Shown: one piece after another, positions 1 to 39,703 of the stretch
How the letters are laid out: the number at the start of each line of letters is the position of its first letter
Position numbering within the stretch: the first letter of the stretch is position 1
Notes under the pieces: model-generated
Databases searched by the model: none
Seen by the model: only the letters and a program-made list of their open reading frames with translations
Told to the model about the DNA's origin: nothing
Assembly (NCBI GenBank): GCA_009702965.1
Contig: WLHB01000008.1
Span: 1 to 44,548, forward strand
Length of the DNA: 44,548 bases
From: Actinomycetota bacterium
Lineage (GTDB): Bacteria > Actinomycetota > Actinomycetes > Nanopelagicales > Nanopelagicaceae
Direction: 5' to 3'
Position numbers and translations under genes: made by a program

Positions 1-51
1 AGTAAGAATCAGAGCTTCCTCGGCAAATTTAGAGAGTCATTTGGACGCTGA
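1..51 (+). CDS. dnaJ: C-terminal end of an upstream gene, probably DnaJ
   Basis: Only the last 16 codons lie in the window. Frame 1 reads SKNQSFLGKFRESFGR and stops at the TGA at 49-51, which overlaps the ATG of rsmE (TGATG). DnaJ tails in Actinobacteria often end in a short 'FxxKxxExF' helix, and dnaJ is the usual gene before rsmE in this phylum, so DnaJ is the likely identity. The peptide is too short to prove it. The overlap implies translational coupling with rsmE. Confidence 0.55.
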   Translation, partial: SKNQSFLGKFRESFGR

Positions 52-767
52 TGCGTACCCTCTTCTTTGTCTCTGATCTTCCTACACAAGTCGGTGCCAC
101 GTATACCTTCGATAATGAAGATGCTCTCCATGCAATTCGAGTTCTTCGTACCGGCCCTGGCGAAATTTTCTGGCTTAGCGATGGCAAAGGAACATTCTCA
201 ACGGTCAAGGCGTTAGAGGTGAGTAAGCGATCAATGCTTTGTGAAGTTCTTGAATCAGAATTTCAAGAACCACTTGATATCGAATACACCGTCATTCAGG
301 CCCTGCCAAAAGGTGATCGCCTCAAAGCATGCGCAGGGCTTTTGACTGAAGCCGGAGTTGATCGAATTGTTTTCTGGAGTTCGGCACGAAGTATAGGTAA
401 GGCAGATAAGACTTTAGATAAATTAGATGTGACGGTGCGTGAGGCAAGTAAGCAGGCGCGACGTTTTCGGATTCCTGAAATCATTGGACCATTAAGCACC
501 GCTGAAGTAATCGATGAGATTGCTAGAACAGATCTCGCGATCGTCTTTCATGAGAGCGCAACGAGCAAGCTTTCGGCGATCACTGCACAGTCTCCCAAGA
601 AGGCCCTGATCATTATTGGTCCAGAAGGTGGCATTACCGATGAAGAGTTAGATGCCTTTACTTCAAGTGGGGCAAAAATTGCGCTCATGGGTCGTCCTAT
701 CTTCCGCAGTGCACATGCAGGTATTGCAGGAATTGCCGCACTTCAAACACTTCTCAAGAGTTGGTAA
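51..767 (+). CDS. rsmE: 16S rRNA (uracil1498-N3)-methyltransferase RsmE
   Basis: A 238-aa protein of the usual RsmE length. It methylates N3 of U1498 in 16S rRNA of the 30S subunit using S-adenosylmethionine. The N-terminal PUA-like part (about 1-70) contains 'HAIRVLR', where the family usually has H.xxVLR. The C-terminal SPOUT knot contains 'IIIGPEGGITDEE' (about 187-199), the SAM-binding loop. The last knot element reads 'MGRPIFRSAHAG' where most family members have LGxRILRxETA, a local deviation in an otherwise clear match. The start overlaps the stop of the preceding gene. Confidence 0.93.
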   Translation: MRTLFFVSDLPTQVGATYTFDNEDALHAIRVLRTGPGEIFWLSDGKGTFSTVKALEVSKRSMLCEVLESEFQEPLDIEYTVIQALPKGDRLKACAGLLTEAGVDRIVFWSSARSIGKADKTLDKLDVTVREASKQARRFRIPEIIGPLSTAEVIDEIARTDLAIVFHESATSKLSAITAQSPKKALIIIGPEGGITDEELDAFTSSGAKIALMGRPIFRSAHAGIAGIAALQTLLKSW

Positions 768-784
768 GCCAGTACCCTTTTGCT

Positions 785-1132
785 ATGGCGCTAGATCCTG
801 ATTGCATATTCTGTAAAATCATTGAGGGAAAGATTCCCGCAGAGATTGTTTTCCGTAATGAAAATGTTGTTGCATTTAATGATCTCAATCCTCAAGCACC
901 GACACATGTATTGATCATCCCGACCTTGCACGCGGCAAATGCTGCTGAAATTTCAACTATCTCTCCAACGATTATCGCCGCCATGCATCGGGCTGCTGAT
1001 GAGATCGCGACCCAGAAGGGCCTCACGGGCTACAGGTCGGTCTTTAATACTGGTGCAGATGCTGGTCAATCAGTTTTTCACGCTCACCTTCATCTCTTAG
1101 GTGGTCGTGGACTGGCATGGCCCCCAGGCTAG
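785..1132 (+). CDS. HIT-family nucleotide hydrolase (HinT-like)
   Basis: A 115-aa histidine-triad protein. It begins 'MALDPDCIFCKIIEGKIPAE', the standard HinT opening, and ends with 'FHAHLHLLGG', which carries the HxHxH catalytic triad at about residues 100-104. HinT enzymes are cytosolic phosphoramidase/nucleoside-monophosphate hydrolases; the true substrate is often unknown. An upstream TTG in frame at 761 would add eight unconserved residues. ATG 785 is preferred because it starts at the conserved block and lies exactly 6 nt after a TANNNT element (TACCCT, 773-778), consistent with a leaderless message starting inside the end of rsmE. Confidence 0.9.
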   Translation: MALDPDCIFCKIIEGKIPAEIVFRNENVVAFNDLNPQAPTHVLIIPTLHAANAAEISTISPTIIAAMHRAADEIATQKGLTGYRSVFNTGADAGQSVFHAHLHLLGGRGLAWPPG

Positions 1133-20112: not shown

Positions 20113-20183
20113 AGTTCGGCTTAATCTAGAAGACTAAGCACCCTCTCAGGAAACATTCAGTTCTATTTGGCGTGAAAGGTGAT

Positions 20184-20537
20184 GTGGGGTCGACTACCAA
20201 CATGGCAAAAAAAACGTCTAAGGCTTCGTTCTTGCCTCTGCTGGTCGCCGCTATTGCGATTTTGATCAGCGTCGCCATTTTCTTTCTCACGCGTTCAATG
20301 GCAGACGCTTTTCTTTGGCACCTCATCGCCTATGTACTTACGCCGTTGGTAGTTGCACTCTGCCTTGGTTGGGATTCGATCGCCCAACGTGTAGGTAAGG
20401 GAAATGACCCCTGGTTTTCAGCCAACGCTTCCTATTCACTGATCCTACGTATTCTCACTGGCGCATCCTTCATAGCCGCCTTTCCCCACATTGTCTCCAT
20501 GGCAACTGATATTGCTGAGATTTTGGCGAGCAAATAA
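20184..20537 (+). CDS. Small membrane protein, first gene of the vWA/tubulin-like operon
   Basis: A 117-aa protein with three hydrophobic segments (about 17-36, 43-60 and 85-105) and a basic N-terminus (MAKKTSKAS). No domain recognised. The start is uncertain: GTG 20184 has AAAGG a few bases upstream, ATG 20202 starts at the basic segment, and GTG 20172 is also in frame. Its last codon overlaps the ATG of the vWA gene (TAATG), so the two are coupled and the product probably works with the vWA protein in the membrane. Confidence 0.7.
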   Translation: MGSTTNMAKKTSKASFLPLLVAAIAILISVAIFFLTRSMADAFLWHLIAYVLTPLVVALCLGWDSIAQRVGKGNDPWFSANASYSLILRILTGASFIAAFPHIVSMATDIAEILASK

Positions 20538-23311
20538 TGAAACGTTTTGCTGCTTGGGCATTGGCTCTCATTCTTTCCACAGGCACACTAAGTGCGATTG
20601 TAATTTCAACTCCGGCCGCTAATGCGATCCCATCCATTGATGGTGCATTCGAAGATTTAGGGCGATGTCTTCAATCACAGGGCAAGAATAAAATCCTAGA
20701 TGTTTTTTATCTAATCGATGAATCTGGAAGTTTGAAAAAGACTGACCCAGGGAATGCTCGTGCGGATATCTTAAGTTCCAGTTTGCAGCAGCTGGCTTCT
20801 TTTAGAAGCGATGTGACTGTTAATTACTCAGTTGCTTTCTTCGCGCAGTCATATGGAGTGTGGCAACCGTGGCGTACTGTGAATAAAGGTGGCATTGTTC
20901 CTGAATCGGGGCGGCTAAATGCTGAGGTGAGAAAGCGTAACCAAGGGAAAAATACCGATTGGTTACAGGGAATCAATGGTGCAATCAACGAACTTAATGC
21001 TCAGCACGAGCGTACAAATGGATGTAGCACGCTCATCTGGCTCACTGACGGTGGGATAGACCTATCCCAGGTAGAAAAGACTAAAGAAGCTGTCGATCAA
21101 CTCTGTGAGAATAGATTTGATGTCCTACGTAAGAATGGCGTGACTGTTCTAGGGGTGCTCCTGAAAAATGAAACAGCCTTGGCTAACCTTATTCAGAGCG
21201 AACGTGACTATCAGAAGGTTTGGATGCCATGGATGGAACCGCTAGTAACGGGCCAGGGCGTCTTAGCAGATGGCACAGAAATTCAATGTGGAACTTTCCC
21301 TATCCCAAAGAATTATCGTCAAGGTGCGCTCTTTGTAGCATCTAATCCACAAGAATTAGCATATGAGTTTTTAAAACTTCCCCCACGAATTGAAGGTTGT
21401 GCTGTAGTAAATAACCTCGCAAAAGGTCAATTCGAGATCGAACCTGGAATTAGCGAATTTCAGATAGTAACCACAGCTAAGGATTGGAGTCTGATTGACC
21501 CAAGCGGTAAATCTATTACGGCAACAAGTAGTGACCTAGACAGATTTGAAACCGCTGGAGCGACGCGGATAAAGAGGGGCACAACTAATTCGGGGCGCGG
21601 AGCTTGGAAGTTCAATGGAGCTGGTGGGGAATCTAACCTCTATTACTGCAGCGGACTCGACATTCGAATTGATCCTGGAACAGAATTTATTTCAGGAAAG
21701 GCGGGTTTGCTCTCAGGAAAAGTTATTTCACAATCTACCGGCCTACCTGCAGATTTGACTGAGTATGATTCTGATCATCCGATTACGATTGAATTGATAT
21801 CGGGTGGCAAGAGTGGTCCAAAGAAAGAAGCTGAGCAGAGCAATCCTGCGAGTTTCTTACTTAAGAATTTCACACCAGGTAGCGATAGCGCCGAAGCAGA
21901 GGTGCGGATAACACTTTTCTTGAAGACTAAGGGTGGGATTCCGTTAGCACCTGTTTCAATGTCACAGAAAATTGATGTGCGTCTCCTGAGTAACTACCCG
22001 ACACTAAAGAATGAGCCAATTGAACTCTCAACTTTGGAATCATTGGAAAATCCTGCTGCCGGCACCGTTGTTTTCAAGGGCCCTGAGCGGGCAGATGGAA
22101 AGATTTGTATCGATAAGAATGTAAAACCTGTGGTGATTCAAGATAAATTCTCTCGCGCAGATGGTTATAAAGTTTCAACGACAGGCGTGGATGTAGACGG
22201 TTGCATGCCAATTCGCCAAGGGGAAGAGAGTTCACTGCAGCTCACTGTCGGTAATCCAGTAACTGATCCATCAGATGTGATTCTTGGTCTGCCGATTTCA
22301 TATTACTCAGAGGCTGAGCCGGGTAAAAATTTCACACTGAATGCTCAAGTTAACTTTAGGACAGATCCAGCGGGTGATCCTTTGCTTTGGATCATAATTC
22401 TTACAATCCTTGGAATAGGACTACCGCTTGGATTGATCTATCTCATGCTCTGGTGGGCAACACGAATAGCATATGGACGTCAGTTGCAGAGAGCTGAATA
22501 CCCGATAGCGATTACAACTGAGGGTCGAATCACCAATCGCGATGGCGGTGCAATACCTACTCATGGTGAAAACTATCAGGGTCGGCCACAGCAAGCCGAT
22601 GTCCGTGTCCTCCAAGATGGAAATACAACCCTCAGCGCCAAGTTACCTAAATCAATATTCGCAGAACCTTGGTATGAGATAAAGGCACCAGAAGGCTCTC
22701 GTGTGATTTCTGTAGGAAATATTGCGCCACGAGTGAAGAGTAAGAAACGCTTCGCCACAGGAAAACTTGCTCCAATTGTTGGAGACCTTGGAAAAATCTG
22801 GTACATCATCATTAGCGATTCTGCTTTGGGTAATGCTGCGAAGGCAGAGAAGGGGTCCTTGATTGAGGGCAAACTTGTCATCTTCAATCGCCGAGATCTC
22901 ACCAATCTAAATCAGCATCGCGACTCATTGAATAATGTTTCAAGTAAGCCAGGGTTGGGTGCAGATGTAGAGCGCCTGATTACGATCGTTAAAAACGAAA
23001 AACCCGCAGGCGGAACTGGCGGAACTGGCGGAACTGGCGGAACTGGCGGAACTGGTGGAACTGGCGGAATTCCACCACGTCCTTCAATTGGAGGTCCAGG
23101 TCGCCCTAACGGTCCCGGCACTCCCGCAGCAACAACGCGTCCCAATATGCCGGGTGCGCCAACGAGATCAGGAAATCCAATTCAACCCAGCACGACCACT
23201 CCTGCTGGTCCAGCACGTGTAACACCACCGTCAACTCCAGGAGGTGCGCCAAGCAGACCATCTGGTCCTGGCGCTCCAACGCGAAAGGGTGGCCCTGGAT
23301 CACCGCCGTAG
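20537..23311 (+). CDS. Membrane-anchored von Willebrand factor A domain protein
   Basis: A 924-aa protein. Signal peptide 1-30; vWA domain about 52-260 with MIDAS start 'LIDESGSLKK' (D61, S63, S65), a Thr in 'GKNTDWLQG' and 'LIWLTDGG'; then an extracytoplasmic beta-rich region to about 610. One transmembrane helix lies at about 615-640 ('LLWIIILTILGIGLPLGLIY'), then a ~180-residue cytosolic domain. A low-complexity tail (about 825-924) has seven Gly-Gly-Thr-type repeats and then Pro/Gly/Thr-rich sequence. The sensor-like vWA part is outside and the tail inside, where it could meet the tubulin-like protein encoded next. Confidence 0.85.
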   Translation: MKRFAAWALALILSTGTLSAIVISTPAANAIPSIDGAFEDLGRCLQSQGKNKILDVFYLIDESGSLKKTDPGNARADILSSSLQQLASFRSDVTVNYSVAFFAQSYGVWQPWRTVNKGGIVPESGRLNAEVRKRNQGKNTDWLQGINGAINELNAQHERTNGCSTLIWLTDGGIDLSQVEKTKEAVDQLCENRFDVLRKNGVTVLGVLLKNETALANLIQSERDYQKVWMPWMEPLVTGQGVLADGTEIQCGTFPIPKNYRQGALFVASNPQELAYEFLKLPPRIEGCAVVNNLAKGQFEIEPGISEFQIVTTAKDWSLIDPSGKSITATSSDLDRFETAGATRIKRGTTNSGRGAWKFNGAGGESNLYYCSGLDIRIDPGTEFISGKAGLLSGKVISQSTGLPADLTEYDSDHPITIELISGGKSGPKKEAEQSNPASFLLKNFTPGSDSAEAEVRITLFLKTKGGIPLAPVSMSQKIDVRLLSNYPTLKNEPIELSTLESLENPAAGTVVFKGPERADGKICIDKNVKPVVIQDKFSRADGYKVSTTGVDVDGCMPIRQGEESSLQLTVGNPVTDPSDVILGLPISYYSEAEPGKNFTLNAQVNFRTDPAGDPLLWIIILTILGIGLPLGLIYLMLWWATRIAYGRQLQRAEYPIAITTEGRITNRDGGAIPTHGENYQGRPQQADVRVLQDGNTTLSAKLPKSIFAEPWYEIKAPEGSRVISVGNIAPRVKSKKRFATGKLAPIVGDLGKIWYIIISDSALGNAAKAEKGSLIEGKLVIFNRRDLTNLNQHRDSLNNVSSKPGLGADVERLITIVKNEKPAGGTGGTGGTGGTGGTGGTGGIPPRPSIGGPGRPNGPGTPAATTRPNMPGAPTRSGNPIQPSTTTPAGPARVTPPSTPGGAPSRPSGPGAPTRKGGPGSPP
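23009..23071 (+). repeat. 9-bp tandem repeat (GGCGGAACT x7) in the vWA gene
   Basis: Five exact GGCGGAACT units, then GGTGGAACT and GGCGGAATT, encoding (GGT)n-GGI. Units are in frame, so copy-number change would alter the length of the flexible linker without a frameshift. Confidence 0.9.
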
Positions 23312-23371
23312 TAAGAAATAAATAACTTCAGTACATTACTTACAGTTCAAGACAATCGAAAGGTCACAAAA

Positions 23372-26300
23372 ATGTTATCTAAGTTTCTTCTCATCGGTGT
23401 CGGTGGTTCGGGCGGAAAAACTCTGCGCGCACTCAGAAACAATCTTGAACTCAAGTTAAGTCAAGCCAATTGGGCGGATGGTGTGCCTATGGGATGGCAG
23501 ATGCTTCATATCGATAGCCCAGTGATTCAAGATGGCACTGGTTTTCCAGCACCAATGTTGCCGCCTGCCGATTACAAGGGTCTATCTAGATCTGGCCAAA
23601 AGTATTCTGACGCTTATGCGAATTCATTTAACTTTGTCGAAGCCCAGGATAAAGAAGACTATAAGAGATTCCTCCCTGATGAGAAGGAGGTAGATGTAGA
23701 TATTACAGTCGGCGCTGGTCAATTCCGCGGAGTTGGTCGTGTATTGGCTCTTTCAGCTCATGAACAAATTAAGCAAGCTCTTCGCGGAAAACTGGATTTA
23801 CTCTTGCGCGCAGAGGCCGAACCAGAATTAAAGCGACTAGCCCGTCAATTGGGGCTTGACGATCAAATTCAAGCTTCTCCAACAATTATTGTAATCTCAT
23901 CTATTGCGGGTGGTTCCGGTGCAGGTCAATTTCTTGAGATTTCAGAGATGATCAAAGGTTTGCATCCGTCCAAAAACTGGGTTCATGAGATCTTTAATAT
24001 GCTCTATGCGCCAGATGTATTTACTGAAGTAGATCCTGAACTTCTTGCAGGTAACGCACTCTTCTCGATGGGCGAGATTATGAGTGGGTTGTGGTCTACG
24101 CCAACTAAGGGAACTATGCGTATGACAGAGCTTATGGGAGACAATATTCCGTATCACGATGCAAACTATAAAACTGGTGCTAAGTATAACTTTATGATCG
24201 GAAAGGGTGGTTTTTCAAAGCAAGAAGATGTCTATCTTGCGGTGGCTACATCCCTTACTACTTGGATGACTGACCAAGAGGTTAATGACAAGATTACGGC
24301 TTTCTCACGTGGCAATTATCAGGCCTCAACTTTAGAAACAAATCTGCCAGACAAATCTGGTTTAAAAACTGCAAATAAAGATGCAACTCCATTCATGGCT
24401 CTTGGTTTCGGTCGCGTCGGTTTAGGTAAAGAACGATTCGTTGCATATGCAGCACAGAGGCTAGCGCGTTCAGCGATAGATCGAATGCTCTATGCTCACA
24501 CGATCGAAGATCCTAAATTTGCAATCAAAACTGAAGATGAATGGGTGACCTTCTTCGCTGAAAAGAACCTCTTCGATTTTATTGATACTGTGAAACTAAA
24601 TGAAGAGACCGAACAGCACAATGACATTATTGATGCGATTCGTCCTAATCGCGATGCAATGTATGCAAATTTGAAGAGCCAAGTTCTGGCGGTAGCCTCA
24701 CAGACACTCAACCCAAAAACCAATGCTCAGTCATTAATTGAATGGGATGACAGTCTTCGAGCCGGCTTCAACAATTACATTGAGCAATTTTTAGATGAAG
24801 AGGCAACGGAGCGCAATTCAATTATGCGCCCATGGGTAAAGCAGAAAAAGAATGATTTACTCTCATTAACTTCGAAGTATGTCTCTCAGCATGGAATTAA
24901 AGTCACGTGCGAAATTCTTCATAGACTATCTACAAAGCTGGTTGCTGTCGCTGATGAGCTTCGTGCTGAGTCTGATTTGCAACTTAAGTATGCAGCTGAC
25001 TTATCTTCATACATACGTGGTGAACTTGGAAAGTTCCCTGAGAAGAATCAGAATGAGATTCCATCAGGACATGAGGTTGTAGAGGGGGCACTGGGAGAAG
25101 TTGCTTACTCCTTCTACTACCGTTCAGAAGCAGCGCTCAAGCAGAGTGCTTCAGCACTGGTAGCGGACATGGCTGAAAACTTCATCGAGCCATTGCGCTC
25201 GGATCTTATGAGTATCTACCGCGGGCTCCTTGGCGCTAAGAAAGAGTTTATGGATTGGTCAACAGAAGACTCGATTTCTGTTCCCCGTCACTTTGAACCA
25301 TCTAAAAATGAGAAGTTATTAATAGAGACGACGGACTACCCCGCTCAATTTGCAGAGTTGGTAAATAATTCTGTAGTTTCAGAAAAGCGAACGAATGCGA
25401 TGCGGCAGGTTGTCGATGAAGTAATCATGGGTGGCCTAGCGCTTCCAAATCTGGATCGTAGAAACTATTGGGAGTTCATCACCACTACAAGAGATTGGGT
25501 ACCAACACCTCGAGAGGCACGCGAAGACCGTCAGCAGAATGCACAGTCAGCGAAGTTTGAGGTCTCGATTTACCCAGTTGATTATCTTGAGCGTGCTCAA
25601 AAATGGATGAAGCAGATGGGCACCCCATTCGCAGGATTCGTCAATGAGAGTCTCTCTTCTTATCTGACAAACGAGAGAGATAAATCAGTCCTCAAGGAGC
25701 GCCAGGATAAGTTCCTTGCAAAACTTGAGGAGGCGATTACTGATGGGGCACCTCTAGTGAATATCAATGATGGGCTTTCATCCTCAATACATATGTCAAA
25801 AGCTAAAGTAGATGTCGTAGTCTCAACGATCCCGTTGGATTCAACACACCCATTGTTTGGCAAAGTTGGTGAAATTCTAGAACGTAAAGACTTAACCGGT
25901 GCGGTCAGTGGAAAAACATTTGATCCGCAATCCTCTAATCAGAGTATCGATTTCTTCAGCGTTCACCAGGGTGTTCAGCCGATGGTTTTGGATTCGATAA
26001 TTGGGCCAATTTCACAGTACTGGAATTCCCATAACTCTCTGTCTACTACTCGTGCAGGGTTGATGCTTCATCGTCGCCCTCGATATCTATATGAATCGAT
26101 TCCCGCATCAGGAACAGTTAAGCTCGATATCTTAAAGGGATACTTTGTTGCGCGGGCGCTTAAGAACTTCCGATCTGATAAAGAACTCACAAAAGATGAG
26201 AAGAAGAAAAAGGGTCCAAAACTCTCGATTTCTTCTAGTGATGGATCTAAGTACCACGCATTTCCTTATCCATTGCTCATCACGGATGAAATCGAAGTGA

Positions 26301-26731
26301 TGGATTATCCAGGCGGGCTAATTTCCTCACTCGCAATTGCGATCGTCGCCTGCAACGGAACACAGTCACTGGAGCCATTAGAATCCTACAAACGACTCCA
26401 GGAACTTGCCGATCTCAAGAGTTCTGCTTCAGAACTTAAACACTGGCTAGAAACTGGAGATAGTGGTCGCGGTCCAGTTCCTGATCCAGAGCGCGCAGGA
26501 AGAAAAGAGGACTCTGCAGAGGTAAGACGCGAAGTTCTACTTAAGTACATTTCAGATAATGTCAGTAAGTATGAAGCACGTTTTGCAAAGCAGAGCCTTC
26601 CTTCAGATCGTGATGATGCCCAAGACAAAGATTTAACTTGGGAAATCAGAGAGCCACTGTTGGAGGCTCTCAAGAGTCTTCATAAAGACGTTGCAAAGAT
26701 GGACTTTGATGCCGGTGAGGATGAAGATTAA
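23372..26731 (+). CDS. Tubulin-like (Tubulin_2) FtsZ/tubulin-superfamily protein
   Basis: A 1119-aa protein. The N-terminus 'KFLLIGVGGSGGKTLRALR' is the first nucleotide-binding loop, followed by 'GWQMLHIDSPVIQDG', typical of the Tubulin_2 family. 'IVISSIAGGSGAGQFLE' (about 172-188) is the tubulin/FtsZ signature loop (GGGTGSG in FtsZ) as AGGSGAG. The remaining ~800 residues are helical and unrecognised. Predicted GTP-binding and possibly polymerising. Large proteins of this family sit next to vWA genes in diverse prokaryotes, as here. Ribosome site GAAAGGT precedes ATG 23372; the stop abuts the next ATG. Confidence 0.82.
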   Translation: MLSKFLLIGVGGSGGKTLRALRNNLELKLSQANWADGVPMGWQMLHIDSPVIQDGTGFPAPMLPPADYKGLSRSGQKYSDAYANSFNFVEAQDKEDYKRFLPDEKEVDVDITVGAGQFRGVGRVLALSAHEQIKQALRGKLDLLLRAEAEPELKRLARQLGLDDQIQASPTIIVISSIAGGSGAGQFLEISEMIKGLHPSKNWVHEIFNMLYAPDVFTEVDPELLAGNALFSMGEIMSGLWSTPTKGTMRMTELMGDNIPYHDANYKTGAKYNFMIGKGGFSKQEDVYLAVATSLTTWMTDQEVNDKITAFSRGNYQASTLETNLPDKSGLKTANKDATPFMALGFGRVGLGKERFVAYAAQRLARSAIDRMLYAHTIEDPKFAIKTEDEWVTFFAEKNLFDFIDTVKLNEETEQHNDIIDAIRPNRDAMYANLKSQVLAVASQTLNPKTNAQSLIEWDDSLRAGFNNYIEQFLDEEATERNSIMRPWVKQKKNDLLSLTSKYVSQHGIKVTCEILHRLSTKLVAVADELRAESDLQLKYAADLSSYIRGELGKFPEKNQNEIPSGHEVVEGALGEVAYSFYYRSEAALKQSASALVADMAENFIEPLRSDLMSIYRGLLGAKKEFMDWSTEDSISVPRHFEPSKNEKLLIETTDYPAQFAELVNNSVVSEKRTNAMRQVVDEVIMGGLALPNLDRRNYWEFITTTRDWVPTPREAREDRQQNAQSAKFEVSIYPVDYLERAQKWMKQMGTPFAGFVNESLSSYLTNERDKSVLKERQDKFLAKLEEAITDGAPLVNINDGLSSSIHMSKAKVDVVVSTIPLDSTHPLFGKVGEILERKDLTGAVSGKTFDPQSSNQSIDFFSVHQGVQPMVLDSIIGPISQYWNSHNSLSTTRAGLMLHRRPRYLYESIPASGTVKLDILKGYFVARALKNFRSDKELTKDEKKKKGPKLSISSSDGSKYHAFPYPLLITDEIEVMDYPGGLISSLAIAIVACNGTQSLEPLESYKRLQELADLKSSASELKHWLETGDSGRGPVPDPERAGRKEDSAEVRREVLLKYISDNVSKYEARFAKQSLPSDRDDAQDKDLTWEIREPLLEALKSLHKDVAKMDFDAGEDED

Positions 26732-28297
26732 ATGTCATTCAAATGGGTTAACAACTCGGTAAGTATTGTCTTGCTTCCCAGTGAAGCACGGTATCCAAAG
26801 CTGCATGAACAGCTGAAAGAATGGATCGGTGATGGTCTTCTAGGTAATTTTATTTGGATGACGGCAGACGACATTACGAAAGAGGGTTTTGGCCCCCCAA
26901 CTACGCGTGGAATAGTGTGGGGTCTTGATGAAGATCGTGAACTTGTTGGCATTGAGGTCAATCCGTTTGATGAATTGGCCAGAAACAAATTCAAAACAGT
27001 TCGACTAGTTGCAGTTCGAGTTCTCTCAAACACCTTCCAGCCTGATGAAGAAGAATATGAGAAATTCGATCTTCTCTCCGAGACGATCAGACTCTCTCTT
27101 CCGCTTGCCCTGAGCGAGGACCGGCCAGGAGACAAAACTAATCTGCGCCGCATTAACTTAGTTGTGTTTCCTACTGAGCTCAAAAGTAATGAATATTCAA
27201 CTGTCTTTAAGGGGCAGTGGGATCATCACGTGATTGCTTCACCAGAGGATCGCAAGACTCCGCTGTCAGCAGACCGGTTTGTCAAAGAAGACGCTAGATA
27301 TCCAAAGTTTATTGCCATGCACGTTGCTGCAACCGGTGGACTGTGGAATGGAATTGCAAGAAGCCCATTTGATGATCTTGCTAAACCGGAGAGTGGAGCG
27401 CACTCCTATCAACTCTCCCGTGTATTTGTAAACTCTGTACTCACTGATGGACTTTCACGACGAGTTGCTGCTTCTGTCCTATCTGATCTTGCTGATCCAA
27501 ACATAGATCTCCATGCAAAGGGATTAGTCGCTGAGATTGACAACACTTACTTTATTGAAGATTTAGATATTGAACATGTTGTTGACGAGATGGTGGAAAT
27601 CGTCTTCAACTCCGATAATAAAGTGCTTCGTTTTGCAGAACCAGATCCCGAGGAAGAACTTAAGCAGCAACGTTGGACTGAGTGGCAGAGTATTAGTGAT
27701 TTCTTGAAATTCTGCGGCCAACGTTTTCTCGCAATGCCAAAATGGTGTTGGATCTGGATTCGGAGACGAATCGGCAAGAAGTTACAAGATTCATTGATCG
27801 GTCCAGATGGCGGCGTCATGATTGGTATAGATCAGTACGATGCCGAGGACATTCGTGATCGCCACCTATTCGGCCAATTGGAAACAATTGGAAACAATGT
27901 GCGTGAAGCAGAAAAAGCCTTGGTAATGCCATTCCGACGTACGAGCACAACGTCACGAGGGGCACTTTGGTCTGATTTACGACAACTGATTTATGGTTTC
28001 CTCGAGGGAGGGGATCTCTCTAAATTTGGAGTTAAAGATTCAAACGGGCGATATCCGATCTTCTCGAAAGTTTCAGATGTCATTCAGGATCCCAAGGAAT
28101 GCTGGACTATAGGAACAGAGCTAGAAGGATTGAGTGAAATCAAAGTAGTCGGATGGTCAAATATTGATCAGGCACCCGAGTTAGTTGAGATTCATACTGC
28201 ACATGTCTCTGAAAGACGTCGAGAGCTCGATGCGAGGCTGAACAAGCTGGTTGAGATCGATACCAAGATTAGAGAATTAACGGAGGGCACTCGATGA
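26732..28297 (+). CDS. Unrecognised 521-aa protein of the tubulin-like operon
   Basis: Starts directly after the stop of the tubulin-like gene and overlaps the next gene by 4 nt, so it is a fixed operon member. I see no signal peptide and no P-loop. A Trp-rich, hydrophobic-basic segment 'AMPKWCWIWIRRRIGKK' lies at about 332-348 and may associate with membrane. The N-terminal ~300 residues look mixed alpha/beta; the C-terminus ends in a charged helix ('RRRELDARLNKLVEIDTKIR') likely to form a coiled coil. It may bridge the tubulin-like and membrane coiled-coil proteins (inference from order only). Confidence 0.75.
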   Translation: MSFKWVNNSVSIVLLPSEARYPKLHEQLKEWIGDGLLGNFIWMTADDITKEGFGPPTTRGIVWGLDEDRELVGIEVNPFDELARNKFKTVRLVAVRVLSNTFQPDEEEYEKFDLLSETIRLSLPLALSEDRPGDKTNLRRINLVVFPTELKSNEYSTVFKGQWDHHVIASPEDRKTPLSADRFVKEDARYPKFIAMHVAATGGLWNGIARSPFDDLAKPESGAHSYQLSRVFVNSVLTDGLSRRVAASVLSDLADPNIDLHAKGLVAEIDNTYFIEDLDIEHVVDEMVEIVFNSDNKVLRFAEPDPEEELKQQRWTEWQSISDFLKFCGQRFLAMPKWCWIWIRRRIGKKLQDSLIGPDGGVMIGIDQYDAEDIRDRHLFGQLETIGNNVREAEKALVMPFRRTSTTSRGALWSDLRQLIYGFLEGGDLSKFGVKDSNGRYPIFSKVSDVIQDPKECWTIGTELEGLSEIKVVGWSNIDQAPELVEIHTAHVSERRRELDARLNKLVEIDTKIRELTEGTR

Positions 28298-30042
28298 GCA
28301 CCGACGAAGATTTCAAGAGCAGTAATCCAAATGGAGAAAACGTTGATCCTGAGAACTCTGATTCGAATGGACCTGTAGAAGAGCCTACGACTCCGGTCGT
28401 CACTCCACCAGAAGAGACTCCACCTACTCCACCAGAAGAGACTCCACCTACTCCACCAGAAGAGACTCCACCTACTCCACCAGAAGAGACTCCACCTACT
28501 CCACCAGAAGAGATTTCGCACTCTAAAGTGGAAGAGGAATTAAAGCGTGCTGCTGAAAATGCAGAGGCCTTACGTCTTGCTGAAGAAAAAGAGAGAGAAG
28601 AACGGTTGGAAGCGCTACAAAAAGAGCGTGAACTGATTCATGCAGAGGTGCAGGCTCTGACCGATGAAATAGATATCAAGGAAGAGAAAGCTTCACAGTT
28701 TGCTATCTGGGTAGAGCGCCATCGTAGAACATTCCTATGGAAGATGTTTGCTCGGATGCGGGGGGAGCGAGACGCGGTCATCGCTAAACGAGATTCATAT
28801 GTATCTACTATGGAGAATTTGCAGTTACCTGAACCAGGTGAACTAGTTCGCCTTCGTAAGCGTTTTCATAAAACTATCTTGAGCGTTTTTGGCATCAGTT
28901 TCTTTTTGTGGTTGGCATATTTCTTAGTAACAACATTCTTGCCATTCGCCTGGGTTATCAGGTTAACTAGTTTTGGTTCTACAATATTCAGGTACGTGTT
29001 AGCCGCTTCGATTATCACAATATTTAGTGCCCTCATTCTTTATTATCGCGACTGGCGTCGCTTTGATTGGAGAGTGAAAACTTTGATCAAAACACTTGAA
29101 AATGTCGCAAAAGGTTTCGATAAAGTTCGTCAAGAAGAGGTGCGACTCTTCTCGCTTTATCCTCAGGTCGTTGACTGGCTTGAAATACTGGGTTATTCCC
29201 TCAATCGCCCATGGACCATGAATGACCGTTGGTTTAAGTCATATCTCTCTGACCTCAATCAAGATGAATTTCCATTTTCATTACGTATCGCTCAAGCCCA
29301 AGAGAGCGATGCCTCATCTATGAATAAGCTTCAAGGTCGGGCCATGAAGAGCTTTGCTATCCGTGGATGGAGAAGCAAGGTACTTAAAGATCAAGTGACA
29401 GCAATCGCACACACTGTTGGGTTACCGAGTGAGCGGATGAATATTGATGGCCTAGATGCTGACATTGCCTATTCACCAGGAGGACCACGGAGTGAGATGC
29501 GCAAAGGGTTGGAAAACCAAGATGCTCTTGAGCTTGTAGCTCGCCGACAACTTGTACCCCTTACATTCAAAGTTCAAAGTGAAGGCATAACTAAATCACG
29601 TCCGCCTGTTAAGGAAAATCGGACCAATGTCTTGGACCCAATTCAGGCAGATCAAGCAGGTCTGGAAGAAGAAGAGCGAGTAGATTGGGATGACTTCTTG
29701 CGGGAACCGATCGGGCCTTTCGATGGTTTAGTGACGCCATTTAGCATTGCTTCACTCACTCAAGGGCAAGTTGGCTACGGTTATCACGAGAAAATGAAAT
29801 CTCACTTTGTCGTTCCAGAAAGACTCGAGGGGGATTCCAAAAAGAATCCAGATGCTCGCGTTGAGACATATCCTGAGACCGCAAATCTTCCAATGGATAT
29901 AGTCATTCGGATGGATCTTTCAGACCCAATGCCTCCAAAAGCGATCAAGATCAATTCAAAGGCAGGGTTGGCAGAAACTTCACCGCCTGAAGATGAAACT
30001 CGCCCAGGTGCACGTCCAGTAGATGACGAAGAGGAAGACTAA
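28294..30042 (+). CDS. Two-pass membrane protein with Pro/Glu repeats and coiled coil
   Basis: A 582-aa protein. Acidic N-terminus, then PPEETPPT repeats (about 38-73) and a long charged coiled coil (about 78-180, 'EELKRAAENAEALRLAEEKE'). Two hydrophobic segments follow at about 193-217 and 229-250, then a ~250-residue soluble region and an acidic tail ending DDEEED. Both ends are predicted cytosolic, so it could anchor a cytosolic assembly, for example of the tubulin-like protein. GGAGGG lies before the ATG, which overlaps the upstream stop. Its last 4 nt overlap the end of the convergent AAA+ gene. Confidence 0.78.
   Translation: MSTDEDFKSSNPNGENVDPENSDSNGPVEEPTTPVVTPPEETPPTPPEETPPTPPEETPPTPPEETPPTPPEEISHSKVEEELKRAAENAEALRLAEEKEREERLEALQKERELIHAEVQALTDEIDIKEEKASQFAIWVERHRRTFLWKMFARMRGERDAVIAKRDSYVSTMENLQLPEPGELVRLRKRFHKTILSVFGISFFLWLAYFLVTTFLPFAWVIRLTSFGSTIFRYVLAASIITIFSALILYYRDWRRFDWRVKTLIKTLENVAKGFDKVRQEEVRLFSLYPQVVDWLEILGYSLNRPWTMNDRWFKSYLSDLNQDEFPFSLRIAQAQESDASSMNKLQGRAMKSFAIRGWRSKVLKDQVTAIAHTVGLPSERMNIDGLDADIAYSPGGPRSEMRKGLENQDALELVARRQLVPLTFKVQSEGITKSRPPVKENRTNVLDPIQADQAGLEEEERVDWDDFLREPIGPFDGLVTPFSIASLTQGQVGYGYHEKMKSHFVVPERLEGDSKKNPDARVETYPETANLPMDIVIRMDLSDPMPPKAIKINSKAGLAETSPPEDETRPGARPVDDEEED
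28405..28512 (+). repeat. Perfect 24-bp tandem repeat (4.5 copies) coding for PPEETPPT
   Basis: Four identical 24-nt units (28405-28500) plus the first 12 nt of a fifth. Absence of any third-position difference between copies indicates very recent expansion or ongoing homogenisation. The unit is a multiple of three, so length variation keeps the reading frame. Confidence 0.95.
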
Positions 30043-31313
30043 ACAAATCCAAACTTTGGTTTATTAGGATCATCTTTTGGTTTGTTTGGAATCTTTGGGA
30101 CATCTGCGACTGCAAAAGCATCAAGTTCGTGAGGATCAATGATGCCGTCTGCCATTGCGCGCGTTGTCAGGTTGAGAAACATTTTTTCAAAGAGGTTGCG
30201 TGCAAAGCGTCCGTTGCCGTCTTCACCTGAAGGCCTGTAGTCATTTATGTAGTCTCGAAGTGCCTGTTCAACTTCTTCGGTGACCTGAACCGGTGTACCC
30301 GCACTTATCAGTTTAAAAATCTTAATTAAATCTTCGGTGCCATAATCTTCAAATTCAATAAAAGTTTGGAATCGTGACTTAAGACCTTGGTTTGATTTGA
30401 TAAATTGATCCATATCTTCCCTATAACCTGCAACAACTATGGCCAGACTATCTCGCTTATCTTCCATGGCCTTTACCAGCGTTGATATGGCCTCATCGCC
30501 GAATCCATGACTGGACCCAGTGTCACTGGCTAGGGAGTAAGCCTCATCGATGAAAAGAACGCCACCGTCTGCTGAATTGATTGCATCCTGAGTTCTTATT
30601 GCCGTTTGGCCAACGTACCCAGCGACCAAATGCGAGCGATCAACTTCAATGAGCTGACCACCACTGAGTAGTCCAATTGCCTTGTATAAACGTCCGATCA
30701 AACGTGCGACCGTTGTCTTTCCTGTTCCGGGGCTGCCGGTAAAGACTAGGTGTAGACCAACAGGAACCGCAGCGCGATTTTGCTGAGCAAGGACGGTATT
30801 GGCACGATGCAAGGAAATGAGTGAACTGACTTGTTGCTTCGCTTTTTCTAGACCAACAAGTTGATTCAATTCAGCAAGAACATCGTCAAGAGACTCCGAC
30901 TTTCCACCTTGGGGCTTGTTCTGCTTAACAGCAGGCTTTTTTGGCTGTACAGGTTTACGTGGCGTGTCATTTCTTGGACGATCTTTTGTATCTGGCGGTA
31001 GCTCTGGATCCTCGTCATCAGGTTCTTGAGGGTTGAAGATAAAGTCAATGACGGCATCTCTGACTTCGATCGGATCTCCCGCCTCTAACTCATTGAGGAT
31101 CTCCATTGCAGCCTGGCTAATACTTATTGATGCATTTCGGACTACGGGAATTTTGTCTAATTCTTTGTCAATGGATTTGATAGTGAGATCGGTGCCTTGC
31201 GTTCCAATCTTGCTCAGCATCGCACGAAGAATATGTAACTCAGTAATTTGCGCATGCGAATGACGCTTGCACACCTCAACGGCAATTTCTTCGATAGCTA
31301 CGCGGAGTTTCAT
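30039..31313 (-). CDS. CbbX/EccA-type AAA+ ATPase with N-terminal Clp-N-like domain
   Basis: A 424-aa protein. Residues 1-90 ('AIEEIAVEVCKRHSHAQITELHILRAML') resemble one Clp-N substrate-binding unit. A Pro/Lys-rich linker (about 98-140) leads to a CbbX/SpoVK-type AAA+ core: Walker A 'GSPGTGKTTVARLIG', pore/loop 'LVAGYVGQTA', Walker B 'GVLFIDEAYSLA', sensor 'VVAGYREDMDQFI' and 'GLKSRFQTFIEF'. Such ATPases remodel protein complexes, including type VII secretion (EccA). The C-terminal tail is basic and Pro/Asp-rich. Convergent with, and overlapping by 4 bp, the plus-strand operon, which is probably its functional partner. Confidence 0.87.
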   Translation of the reverse strand: MKLRVAIEEIAVEVCKRHSHAQITELHILRAMLSKIGTQGTDLTIKSIDKELDKIPVVRNASISISQAAMEILNELEAGDPIEVRDAVIDFIFNPQEPDDEDPELPPDTKDRPRNDTPRKPVQPKKPAVKQNKPQGGKSESLDDVLAELNQLVGLEKAKQQVSSLISLHRANTVLAQQNRAAVPVGLHLVFTGSPGTGKTTVARLIGRLYKAIGLLSGGQLIEVDRSHLVAGYVGQTAIRTQDAINSADGGVLFIDEAYSLASDTGSSHGFGDEAISTLVKAMEDKRDSLAIVVAGYREDMDQFIKSNQGLKSRFQTFIEFEDYGTEDLIKIFKLISAGTPVQVTEEVEQALRDYINDYRPSGEDGNGRFARNLFEKMFLNLTTRAMADGIIDPHELDAFAVADVPKIPNKPKDDPNKPKFGFV

Positions 31314-33895: not shown

Positions 33896-34021
33896 GGGCC
33901 ACGTTCACCTCACTATTTAAGATTTCCGAGAGCAGCCCTTGCTCGTTGAAACGGGTCGTAGATAGAATTTTCGTCTGGTCGGAATCTTTCCGCCAATTCG
34001 AATGCAGTATTGGGGTACAAA

Positions 34022-34765
34022 GTGGGAAACGAACTCGATGAGATCACTGGTCCAGTTAATCCAGATGGCCGCGACACGAATGTAATTGATAAGCAACTCA
34101 AGGTATCAATTGGTGCTGGAACCAAATTCTTCGAGCTTGCACTGTGGGTCGGCGGAATTCTTATCTTCGGACTCATTGGAATCGCTGCAACAGGCGATCC
34201 AGCGATGGCCGCACTCTTTGCGATTGCTGGAGTTATCCCAGGATTGATTTTCCAATTCTTGAAGCAGAACGCACTCGCATATTTCCGCAAGTTACAACAG
34301 AAGATTCAGGCAGATGCTTCACAGATTGATAACTTCCTTGAACAGAGAGTCATTATTCTGCAGAACCTCACGCGCCTCCTCGATAAGTCCATCGACTTAG
34401 ATAAGGACGTTATGAAGACTGTCGCTGCTTACCGTAGCGGTGTTAATCCAAATGCTGATCAAGTTCGTAACGAAGCTTCAGCTCTCATGGATGGAATTCA
34501 GGCACGAATCAACCTTGCCTTCGAGGCGTACCCAGAACTTAGAGCGCAGGAAAACATCAATGATGCGATGCGCCAGAATTCAACGCTCCAGAAGGAAATT
34601 ACAGCCGCACGCGTGCTCTATAACGACACTGTAAGTATGTGGAATCAGGATATCTTCTCATGGCCAACAAAGATCATCGTTGCGGCCAAGGAAGGATACA
34701 CAACACGTATTCCTTACACAGCGTCAGCTGAAACTAAAGCACAGGCTCGCGGAACATTCTTCTAA
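34022..34765 (+). CDS. lemA: LemA family protein
   Basis: A 247-aa protein. The N-terminal ~40 residues are hydrophilic; a hydrophobic pair of segments (about 38-78) anchors it; the rest is a long helical LemA domain with 'IDNFLEQRVIILQNLTRLLD' and the family's 'AFEAYPELRAQENI', 'ITAARVLYNDTVSMWN' blocks. Compared with ordinary LemA (about 190 aa) it has an extra N-terminal membrane hairpin. GTG 34022 is chosen over TTG 34010 because GGGG lies 6 nt upstream. Its last base overlaps the next ATG. Confidence 0.85.
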   Translation: MGNELDEITGPVNPDGRDTNVIDKQLKVSIGAGTKFFELALWVGGILIFGLIGIAATGDPAMAALFAIAGVIPGLIFQFLKQNALAYFRKLQQKIQADASQIDNFLEQRVIILQNLTRLLDKSIDLDKDVMKTVAAYRSGVNPNADQVRNEASALMDGIQARINLAFEAYPELRAQENINDAMRQNSTLQKEITAARVLYNDTVSMWNQDIFSWPTKIIVAAKEGYTTRIPYTASAETKAQARGTFF

Positions 34766-39171: not shown

Positions 39172-39199
39172 CAACTAGTCGGGGATATGGGTGGACGCA

Positions 39200-39703
39200 A
39201 TGAATAAGAGAAAAACACTCTCAATCCTATTGACCGCATTTTTAGCCGTCTCATTACTCACACCTACCGCCGCTAGTGCTGCATACACAGTTGCTCCGAA
39301 GGTGGGTCAGTGCTTCCAGTACACGAAGGCTCAAGTATCAGCTAAGTACGCTCCAAAGAATCCCATTAACTGTTCATCGAGTCACAATATGGAGACCTTT
39401 GCCGTAAAGACTTGGCCGGTCAATACCAATCCAGTCGATATGGATCGGCAGACGACGCTAGATCTTGTTTCTGAGCTTTGCGATTTCTGGGGAACATTCC
39501 CAAATGCATACGACAGCAGAATGAAAACTTCAGAGTTCAACTATTGGGCTTGGTACACACCTAGCCGTGCAGGATGGGCTAAGGGGCAAAGATGGCTCCG
39601 TTGCGATGCGATGATCGGCAAATTCGCATCAACCGAACAATGGCCACCAGCAACATACGTATCCTGGAAAGGCTTGAAGCTCTACACCGGTTCGAATGTG
39701 TAA
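39200..39703 (+). CDS. Secreted protein with septum-formation-like domain
   Basis: A 167-aa protein. Signal peptide about 1-27 (ends ASAAY). 'VGQCFQYT', 'INCSSSHNMETFAV' and 'GQRWLRCDAM' follow the spacing of Cys and aromatic residues in actinobacterial Septum_form (DUF) secreted proteins: GxCF, C.xPHxxEV and RxxxC. The role of that family is poorly known. ATG 39200 is preferred over an in-frame GTG at 39191 because GGTGGA lies upstream. Probably in one transcript with the lipoprotein gene before it. Confidence 0.72.
   Translation: MNKRKTLSILLTAFLAVSLLTPTAASAAYTVAPKVGQCFQYTKAQVSAKYAPKNPINCSSSHNMETFAVKTWPVNTNPVDMDRQTTLDLVSELCDFWGTFPNAYDSRMKTSEFNYWAWYTPSRAGWAKGQRWLRCDAMIGKFASTEQWPPATYVSWKGLKLYTGSNV

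What the first reader, a model, noticed from the sequence alone, without database searches (positions are those of the whole stretch)
20184..31313. vWA / tubulin-like / coiled-coil / AAA+ multi-gene system, possibly an undescribed membrane-remodelling machine
Seen: an operon with 1-4 nt overlaps or short gaps encodes a small membrane protein, a vWA protein with one TM helix, a 1119-aa protein with the tubulin/FtsZ nucleotide loop (AGGSGAG), an unknown 521-aa protein and a two-pass coiled-coil membrane protein. It converges on a CbbX/EccA-type AAA+ ATPase. Known: Makarova and Koonin (2010, from memory) proposed that an FtsZ-like family with vWA partners forms a membrane-remodelling system. Inference: the vWA protein senses outside, the tubulin-like protein assembles at the membrane through the coiled-coil protein, and the AAA+ protein disassembles it. 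The 521-aa protein, the coiled-coil protein and a CbbX-type AAA+ look like lineage-specific parts.
Basis: partly seen in the sequence, partly recalled or inferred. Interest (0 to 1): 0.85.

Follow-up and report, generated by a model that had tools for sequence, protein, structure and literature searches.

The report
Tubulin pair wired to membrane sensor
A small freshwater bacterium carries a conserved gene cassette joining an outside-facing sensor-like protein to an internal tubulin relative and to a membrane protein that may be a second, inactive tubulin cut into two genes; it resembles predicted but untested conflict systems and can be tested directly.

Summary
Five genes (20172-30042, +) encode a small membrane protein, an exported vWA protein, a Tubulin_2 (FtsZl1) protein and proteins of 521 and 582 aa; an AAA+ gene converges on them. 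The tubulin's AlphaFold model (pLDDT 92.5) matches CetZ and tubulins (Z 22.3) into a second domain beyond a long helical insertion. In 84 loci (window included) the tubulin comes with the 521-aa family in 81 and the vWA in 79. The 521- and 582-aa genes are core and form one gene in 60. The model of a fused homolog aligns to the tubulin fold from its first to its last part (Z up to 10.4); sequence support is weak. I read the pair as a membrane-anchored pseudotubulin without nucleotide loops, split here into two genes. The AAA+ is lineage-specific. Some relatives carry GAP1/DO-GTPase genes (Kaur 2020 conflict systems) or an exported nuclease or protease gene downstream; the window's genome shows no GAP1. 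Best reading: a patchily inherited envelope-surveillance module rather than a division machine. Function is inferred; the paper searches listed no experiment on such a cassette. Novelty: new variant of a known kind, with a possibly new split pseudotubulin.

The parts
20172..20537 (+). P1: small membrane protein, 121 aa, 3 hydrophobic segments (start may be 20184 or 20202)
   Evidence: detected in 57 of 84 loci
20537..23311 (+). P2: exported vWA protein, 924 aa: signal-like N-terminus, vWA, long middle region, one TM, C-terminal part, Pro/Gly-rich tail
   Evidence: 79 of 84 loci; D61, S63, S65 of the metal site and five cysteines (C44, C163, C190, C251, C556) invariant in 41 rows
20708..21052 (+). 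vWA domain of P2 (residues 58-172)
22382..22438 (+). TM helix of P2 (residues 616-634)
23372..26731 (+). P3: Tubulin_2/FtsZl1 protein, 1119 aa
23372..24502 (+). P3 nucleotide-binding tubulin domain (about residues 1-377), with loops GVGGSGGKT and AGGSGAG
24533..25441 (+). P3 mostly helical insertion (about residues 388-690)
   Evidence: secondary structure of the model
25442..26110 (+). P3 tubulin-type second domain (about residues 691-913; limits approximate)
   Evidence: VIA-align model ranges ending at 888-1001 for CetZ and tubulins (first and last aligned residue only)
26732..28297 (+). P4: 521 aa, N-terminal half of the proposed pseudotubulin
   Evidence: fold from a fused homolog
28294..30042 (+). 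P5: 582 aa, coiled coil, two TM regions, C-terminal half of the proposed pseudotubulin
   Evidence: fold from a fused homolog
28873..29040 (+). TM regions of P5 (residues 194-222 and 231-249)
30039..31313 (-). P6: AAA+ ATPase with AAA_lid_6, 424 aa, convergent; lineage-specific accessory
39191..39703 (+). SEP: exported Septum_form-like protein, 170 aa; in two genus relatives its homolog directly follows P5, so perhaps a displaced exported partner (weak)

Best explanation
A horizontally inherited envelope-surveillance module. An exported vWA protein (P2), with a small membrane partner (P1), senses outside the cell. Inside, a GTP-binding Tubulin_2 protein (P3) assembles against a membrane-anchored pseudotubulin (P4+P5), which keeps a two-domain tubulin fold, has lost the nucleotide loops and carries a coiled coil and two TM helices between its halves; in this window the gene is split there. 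The signal switches P3 assembly at the membrane. The output in relatives is an exported protein encoded next door (HNH nuclease, trypsin-like protease, Septum_form-like protein) or a GAP1/DO-GTPase module; the window's AAA+ would reset or disassemble the complex. Shown: gene order, domains, predicted fold of P3, invariance of the P3 loops, absence of conserved glycine loops in P4, lineage distribution. Supported but not proven: P4+P5 as a tubulin fold. Inferred: GTP-driven assembly, direction of signalling, effector role of the exported genes, role of the AAA+.
For: P3 model pLDDT 92.5, pTM 0.85; CetZ 3zid_A Z 22.3, rmsd 3.5, 306 of 360 residues aligned, model 2..893; all 50 rows shown come from tubulin or CetZ entries. 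Loop glycines invariant in 60 of 60 rows. In 84 loci, window included: P3 84, P4 81, P2 79, P5 67, P1 57; P4-P5 in one ORF 60, split 7, P4 only 14; order kept in 55 of 55. P4 in 5 of 396 phylum genomes, all 5 among the 17 of 396 with Tubulin_2 (own genome counted). Fused homolog model: 42 of the 50 VIA rows are tubulin, gamma-tubulin, CetZ or FtsZ entries by title, best Z 10.4, rmsd 4.6, 256 aligned, ranges from about 6 to 1019-1040; gamma-tubulin 1z5w Z 9.7, 271 aligned; the 8 other rows lie within the helical part, 305-763. C-domain of the fused protein vs C-domain of P3 by hhalign: P 0.0087, 0 of 240 shuffles reach it. Downstream first genes: GmrSD_C 8 and Trypsin_2 6 of 44, while 8 such genomes hold only 14 GmrSD_C genes. 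GAP1-N2, DO-GTPase2 and TerD beside the cassette in Williamsia L105. Patchy: 3 of 61, 5 of 121, 17 of 396 genomes (own genome counted). FtsZ_C present once in 7 of 7 cassette genomes. Kaur et al. 2020 passages.
Against: No functional data. For the fused model Foldseek has no row at E 0.001, and the first probable tubulin chain stands at E 1.5; VIA only re-aligns Foldseek's candidates, and tubulins are very common in the PDB. The viral library gives SMC-like coiled coils. hhalign's own probability for the C-domain match is only 4.6% over 37 columns, the best block shuffle came near (22.2 against 23.4), and it is one of 13 real profile comparisons made, uncorrected. The N-domain of P4 shows no profile similarity to P3 (P 0.23-0.28) and none to PDB tubulins. 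P4 and P5 of the window were not folded; a 1047-aa homolog was. No GAP1-N2 in the window genome, which is 76% complete. The window's exported gene SEP is 8 kb away; G032 has the cassette without SEP, and 5 of 9 genus genomes with SEP show no cassette gene on the stretch fetched. 30 of 74 loci gave no downstream first gene by the rule used: 3 lack P4/P5, 20 had no fitting ORF, 7 had no room.
Confidence: 0.45

Rival explanations
1. Membrane-remodelling or vesicle machine as proposed by Makarova and Koonin: P3 filaments held to the membrane by P5 deform it; vWA and AAA+ control assembly.
For: FtsZl1 with vWA and membrane partners is their proposal; P5 has TM helices and coiled coil.
Against: No remodelling component recognised; a reviewer of that paper doubted the reading; patchy presence even within a genus; exported nucleases and proteases among the neighbours.
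Confidence: 0.2
2. Export or surface-display system: the tubulin pair with vWA positions or releases the exported protein encoded next door (nuclease, protease, Septum_form-like protein).
For: Such a gene directly follows P4/P5 with near-zero gaps in many loci; P2 is exported with invariant cysteines.
Against: No channel or secretion ATPase recognised in the cassette; the neighbours examined carry their own N-terminal hydrophobic segments by eye.
Confidence: 0.2
3. P4+P5 is an unrelated or SMC-like coiled-coil membrane protein, and its likeness to tubulin is a common alpha/beta arrangement.
For: Foldseek ranks other proteins first; Z 10 is moderate; no sequence signal in the N-domain.
Against: Tubulin-family alignments start in P4 and end in P5 and hold 220-275 residues, and no other alpha/beta fold is among the 50 rows; C-domain profile match; downstream genes in four other Tubulin_2 loci have the same architecture, two with partial Tubulin_2 matches.
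Confidence: 0.22

Closest known systems
FtsZl1 family with vWA partner (Makarova and Koonin 2010, PMC2875224; parts 1-3 of 5 of the text read)
   Same: Tubulin_2 protein of about 1100 aa with a T4-like loop, coiled coil and helical part; neighbouring membrane vWA gene
   Different: They could not place T6-H7 or a known C-terminal domain; the model here aligns to tubulins beyond the helical insertion. No OmpA-like, kinase or P-loop GTPase gene among the cassette proteins scanned; a conserved P4/P5 partner is described here
Actinobacterial tubulin theme of GAP1-N2 GTPase-centric conflict systems (Kaur et al. 2020, PMC7159879; passages found by search words read, not the whole text)
   Same: One recognised tubulin gene with a helical part and a membrane vWA protein; the same P1-P5 cassette stands directly beside GAP1-N2 and DO-GTPase2 genes in Williamsia
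   Different: No GAP1-N2 in 9 of 10 cassette genomes searched, the window's included; P4+P5 as a possible second tubulin is not mentioned in the passages read, which give actinobacteria a single tubulin gene and firmicutes two
CetZ, FtsZ and tubulin
   Same: Fold of P3; Z 22.3 to CetZ 3zid_A
   Different: About 300-residue helical insertion between the domains; 9-15% sequence identity in the rows
SpoVK / EccA / CbbX AAA+ proteins
   Same: AAA with AAA_lid_6
   Different: About 42-56% of each equivalog cut-off; in the genus found in 3 of 121 genomes, two of them beside the cassette and the third on a short contig

Membership tests
FtsZl1 / Tubulin_2 protein family (P3) | Pfam PF13809 above the curated cut-off | tested here: met
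   118.2 bits against 27, E 6.3e-34, residues 6-370
FtsZl1 / Tubulin_2 protein family (P3) | glycine-rich nucleotide loops | tested here: met
   AGGSGAG and GVGGSGGKT; G9, G11, G12, G14, G15, G180, G183 in 60 of 60 rows
FtsZl1 / Tubulin_2 protein family (P3) | tubulin/FtsZ fold | tested here: met
   Foldseek E 2.1e-4 to CetZ1; VIA Z 22.3, rmsd 3.5, 306 aligned
FtsZl1 / Tubulin_2 protein family (P3) | GTP hydrolysis and filament formation | not testable with these tools
   needs purified protein
Tubulin superfamily (P4+P5) | two-domain tubulin fold | tested here: inconclusive
   Homolog model: 42 of 50 VIA rows from tubulin-superfamily entries, Z 8.0-10.4; Foldseek E 1.5 at best; C-domain profile P 0.0087 but probability 4.6%; N-domain none
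Tubulin superfamily (P4+P5) | GTP-binding glycine loops | tested here: not met
   In the N-domain of 38 fused rows only G33, G201 and G205 reach 70% among glycines, no glycine-rich loop. Hence 'pseudotubulin candidate', not a tubulin GTPase
GAP1-N2 GTPase-centric conflict system | GAP1-N2 protein | tested here: not met
   No match in G000 (76% complete), G051 (99%), G317 (100%); 1 of 10 cassette genomes positive, G445
GAP1-N2 GTPase-centric conflict system | DO-GTPase | not tested
   No genome-wide search; no such Pfam hit among the six cassette proteins and four downstream proteins scanned
GAP1-N2 GTPase-centric conflict system | tubulin plus membrane vWA protein (tubulin theme) | tested here: met
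CbbX / EccA / SpoVK equivalogs (P6) | NCBIfam equivalog cut-off | tested here: not met
   193.9 of 459.25, 203.9 of 466.65, 237.5 of 422.95 bits

The most novel reading that the evidence does not exclude
Actinobacterial vWA/tubulin systems run on an asymmetric tubulin pair: a GTPase tubulin and a membrane-embedded pseudotubulin whose coiled coil and two TM helices are inserted between the two tubulin domains. In this lineage the pseudotubulin is encoded as two polypeptides, a split tubulin. The pair couples an extracellular vWA sensor to an internal polymer and to exported nucleases or proteases.
Probability: 0.4. Interest if true: 0.85.

Novelty: new variant of a known kind. Interest (0 to 1): 0.62.

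Why it matters
In what I read, the FtsZl1 proteins have a proposed but untested function. If P4+P5 is a membrane-anchored pseudotubulin, the question of how FtsZl1 meets the membrane becomes directly testable: one fixed partner, one interface, one lost active site. It would also be a bacterial counterpart to tubulin heterodimers or gamma-tubulin-like caps, inside what looks like a surveillance system.

Tried and rejected
Cell-division role: rejected as the main reading because FtsZ_C is present once in 7 of 7 cassette genomes examined and the cassette is missing from most relatives sampled.

Phage or plasmid origin: no match in the collection of 50,697 phage records; none of 100 pattern stretches in viral contigs was confirmed; 2 Rhodococcus megaplasmids among 72,556 plasmid records.

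Known defence system: PADLOC gave no hit for P1-P4, one weak row for P5 (2TM effector, E 0.028) and generic AAA rows for P6.

Solved-structure sequence searches: the P3 profile gave mostly helical proteins and one weak Asgard tubulin row, E 0.54; P4 one response regulator, E 0.28; P5 only membrane-helix rows; P2 vWA proteins.

Empty-site comparison: matches to the upstream flank in genus genomes are short pieces at scattered places (34 of 41 genomes, own included); I did not analyse them further and defined no insertion site. The downstream flank was not compared.

Exclusive link of SEP to the cassette: SEP was in 5 of 6 cassette genomes (not in G032, another genus) and in neither of 2 genus genomes without the cassette; the wider search found it in 9 of 121 genus genomes, of which 5 (G567, G513, G594, G459, G475) show no cassette gene on the stretches fetched. 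The exclusive link is dropped.

SMC-like reading of P4+P5: the coiled-coil rows lie within residues 305-763 only. Viral Foldseek library: SMC-like rows, uninformative.

Profile comparisons that failed: full fused P4P5 or P4 against P3; N-domains; the four neighbour pseudotubulins against the P3 domains (best P 0.10) and against the P4 N-domain.

Rows dropped: L025 and L094, the same places as L100 and L026; eleven duplicate or similar loci, chosen by me; eight such loci, and rows under 93% model coverage, in the tree. Some of the 44 downstream ORFs look like false ORFs in GC-rich DNA. The rule there also misses real neighbours: L037 counted as 'none', yet one search shows a GmrSD_C gene next to its cassette. 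L056 and L057 count as fused although the end of P5 runs on in a second ORF. One term was misspelt. In one search only up to 4 candidates a genome were scored in the rows shown, so weak P4 homologs may be missed.

Full report
What is there. The window is G000:C59, a contig of a 1.12 Mb, 76% complete genome. A same-genus relative (G593, contig C117 of 11,898 bases) has the length and gene layout of the record titled Candidatus Planktophila (L093), so the window is probably from that freshwater actinobacterial group; the name is inference. Genes P1 to P5 run on the plus strand from 20172 to 30042 with overlaps or short gaps, and P6 converges on them with a 4-nt overlap. Pfam finds VWA_2 in P2, Tubulin_2 in P3 and AAA with AAA_lid_6 in P6, and nothing over a cut-off in P1, P4 and P5. 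NCBIfam places P6 nearest SpoVK, EccA and CbbX at 42-56% of each cut-off. P2 has a signal-like N-terminus and one TM helix; P5 has two TM regions.

Conservation. A profile of seven P3 proteins brought 79 named loci from genome contigs, the best 80 of 142 confirmed relatives among 201 stretches, so the sample leans to near relatives. With six earlier loci and the window, two duplicates removed, 84 loci remain. HMMs built here find P3 in 84, P4 in 81, P2 in 79, P5 in 67, P1 in 57 and P6 in 2, the window included. Some misses are contig ends. P1 to P4 are all detected in 55 loci and stand on one strand in the same order in 55 of 55; P4 follows P3 within 400 nt in 81 of 81, and P3 follows P2 within 400 nt in 77 of 79. 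P4 and P5 share one ORF in 60 loci, are two ORFs in 7 (the window, L093, L100, L053, L058, L070, L074), and 14 loci show P4 only. Among 396 genomes of the phylum, 17 have Tubulin_2 and 5 have P4, all 5 within those 17 (the handles are those). P6 occurs in 3 of 121 genus genomes, next to the cassette in the window and L093; the third contig ends inside the gene. These counts include the window's own genome.

Distribution. In a family sample 3 of 61 genomes have a P3 homolog; in an order sample 5 of 121. This fits more than one acquisition in one genus. The tree has long branches and the window is flagged for unusual composition, so this is not firm.

Fold of P3. The model of P3 on 60 sequences has pLDDT 92.5 and pTM 0.85. 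Foldseek's first row is CetZ1 (E 2.1e-4). VIA-align gives CetZ 3zid_A Z 22.3, rmsd 3.5, 306 of 360 residues aligned, model range 2..893, and all 50 rows shown are from tubulin or CetZ entries by title. The alignments therefore reach past the helical stretch at about 388-690 into a second domain. Makarova and Koonin 2010 could not identify T6-H7 or a known C-terminal domain in this family (parts 1-3 of 5 of the text read), and a 2023 study of the FtsZ/tubulin family says these proteins lack the FtsZ_C and Tubulin_C Pfam domains (PMC9871819, three passages read). The model suggests that a tubulin-type second domain is present but displaced by the insertion. I could not inspect coordinates, so the position of the T7 loop is open.

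Fold of P4+P5. I predicted the natural fused homolog of L101 (1047 aa, 38 sequences): pLDDT 85.0, pTM 0.70. Foldseek finds nothing at E 0.001; its first probable tubulin chain stands at E 1.5. In the VIA second look 42 of the 50 rows are tubulin, gamma-tubulin, FtsZ or CetZ entries by title; the best has Z 10.4, rmsd 4.6, 256 residues, range 6..1031, gamma-tubulin 1z5w Z 9.7 over 271 residues; the other 8 rows lie within the helical part, 305-763. The tubulin alignments begin in the P4 part and end in the P5 part; how many residues fall in each was not given, and the halves were not folded apart. The C-domains of the fused protein and of P3 align by hhalign with P 0.0087; none of 120 column and 120 block shuffles reaches the score, though the best block shuffle came near (22.2 against 23.4), hhalign's probability is only 4.6%, and this is one of 13 real comparisons. 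The N-domains show nothing (P 0.23-0.28), and full-length comparisons are not significant. No glycine-rich loop is conserved in the P4 part. In other Tubulin_2 loci (L028, L030, L035, L043) the gene after the tubulin has a GLGxxG-type N-terminus, helical stretches, two TM-like segments and a further domain by eye; matching stretches in the genomes of L043 and L028 gave partial Tubulin_2 hits of 7.2e-8 and 7.4e-5, the latter under the cut-off. The fused profile aligns with these four over the coiled coil and TM part (P 0.0084, probability 4.8%; 0 of 240 shuffles), where composition may inflate the score; the P3 domains do not align with them significantly (best P 0.10). I therefore call P4+P5 a pseudotubulin candidate, split in the window, at about 0.65 for the fold.

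Neighbours. Of 74 loci listed, 44 have a same-strand ORF starting within -60 to 150 nt of the P4/P5 end; 23 do not (3 of them lack P4/P5) and 7 have no room. Of the 44, 8 match GmrSD_C, 6 Trypsin_2 and 1 Excalibur; no other family matches more than 3 apart from the overlapping Trypsin model. Eight genomes examined hold 14 GmrSD_C genes in all, and in each one of them lies at the cassette; seven were chosen because of it, G317 was not. In Williamsia L105 the cassette is followed by an 813-aa gene without Pfam hit, a GAP1-N2/GAP1-M gene, a gene with a vWA-TerF-like match under the cut-off (E 0.021) and a DO-GTPase2 gene (29.0 bits against 27), and preceded by TerD. Relatives of that GAP1 gene by BLAST occur in 13 of the 75 loci clustered, window included; these are 13 of the 14 rows of one tree clade, the fourteenth (L095) ending soon after P4/P5. 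GAP1-N2 itself is found in 1 of 10 cassette genomes searched, G445, and not in the window's genome. In the genus relatives G522 and G508 a homolog of the window's Septum_form-like gene (39191-39703) directly follows P5; in the window it lies 8 kb beyond P6. Five of nine genus genomes with this gene show no cassette on the stretches fetched.

What is known. Kaur et al. 2020 (passages read) describe actinobacterial GAP1-N2 systems with one tubulin gene with a helical part and a membrane vWA protein, as predicted conflict systems. The cassette here looks like the same core without GAP1. In those passages no second tubulin is described for actinobacteria. Searches of the paper library listed no experimental study of such a cassette among the rows shown; most subscription papers and preprints are outside that library.

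How it most likely works. Shown: order, domains, loops, predicted folds, distribution. Inferred: the exported vWA protein senses outside; P3 binds GTP and assembles; P4+P5 anchors, nucleates or caps it at the membrane; the exported or GTPase neighbour is the output; P6 resets the assembly in this lineage. The membrane-remodelling reading stays possible at about 0.2.

Noticed in passing
window 34010-36510: A LemA-family gene (PF04011, 3.3e-21) followed by a MAG1210-family gene (NF046000, 1.3e-178) stands downstream of the cassette.
   Followed up: no
L042 and L041 (G190, G378): Two neighbouring short Tubulin_2-like genes of about 500-570 aa beside a gene that looks like a CobW-type GTPase by eye; another divergent tubulin pair in a different family of the phylum.
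   Followed up: no
L038 1683-8272: The Tubulin_2 gene of this locus stands beside two large genes on the other strand that look like a nuclease-helicase pair by eye.
   Followed up: no
L087: Contig titled Bifidobacterium breve MAG with tubulin genes or pieces at both ends and a whole one in the middle, so the tubulin part seems duplicated in tandem, without a detected P4; the title looks doubtful.
   Followed up: no
L054: Record titled Planococcus sp. APC 4015 groups with Microbacterium in the P3 tree; label or assembly may be wrong, or a transfer.
   Followed up: no
window 28402-28512: The N-terminal part of P5 holds TPPEE-type repeats, and P2 ends in GGT and Pro/Gly-rich repeats.
   Followed up: no
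L121, L105, L108, L109 upstream of the cassette: TerD-like genes lie upstream of the cassette in four Nocardiaceae/Gordoniaceae loci; L105's is confirmed by Pfam (4.6e-80), the others belong to its BLAST cluster.
   Followed up: partly
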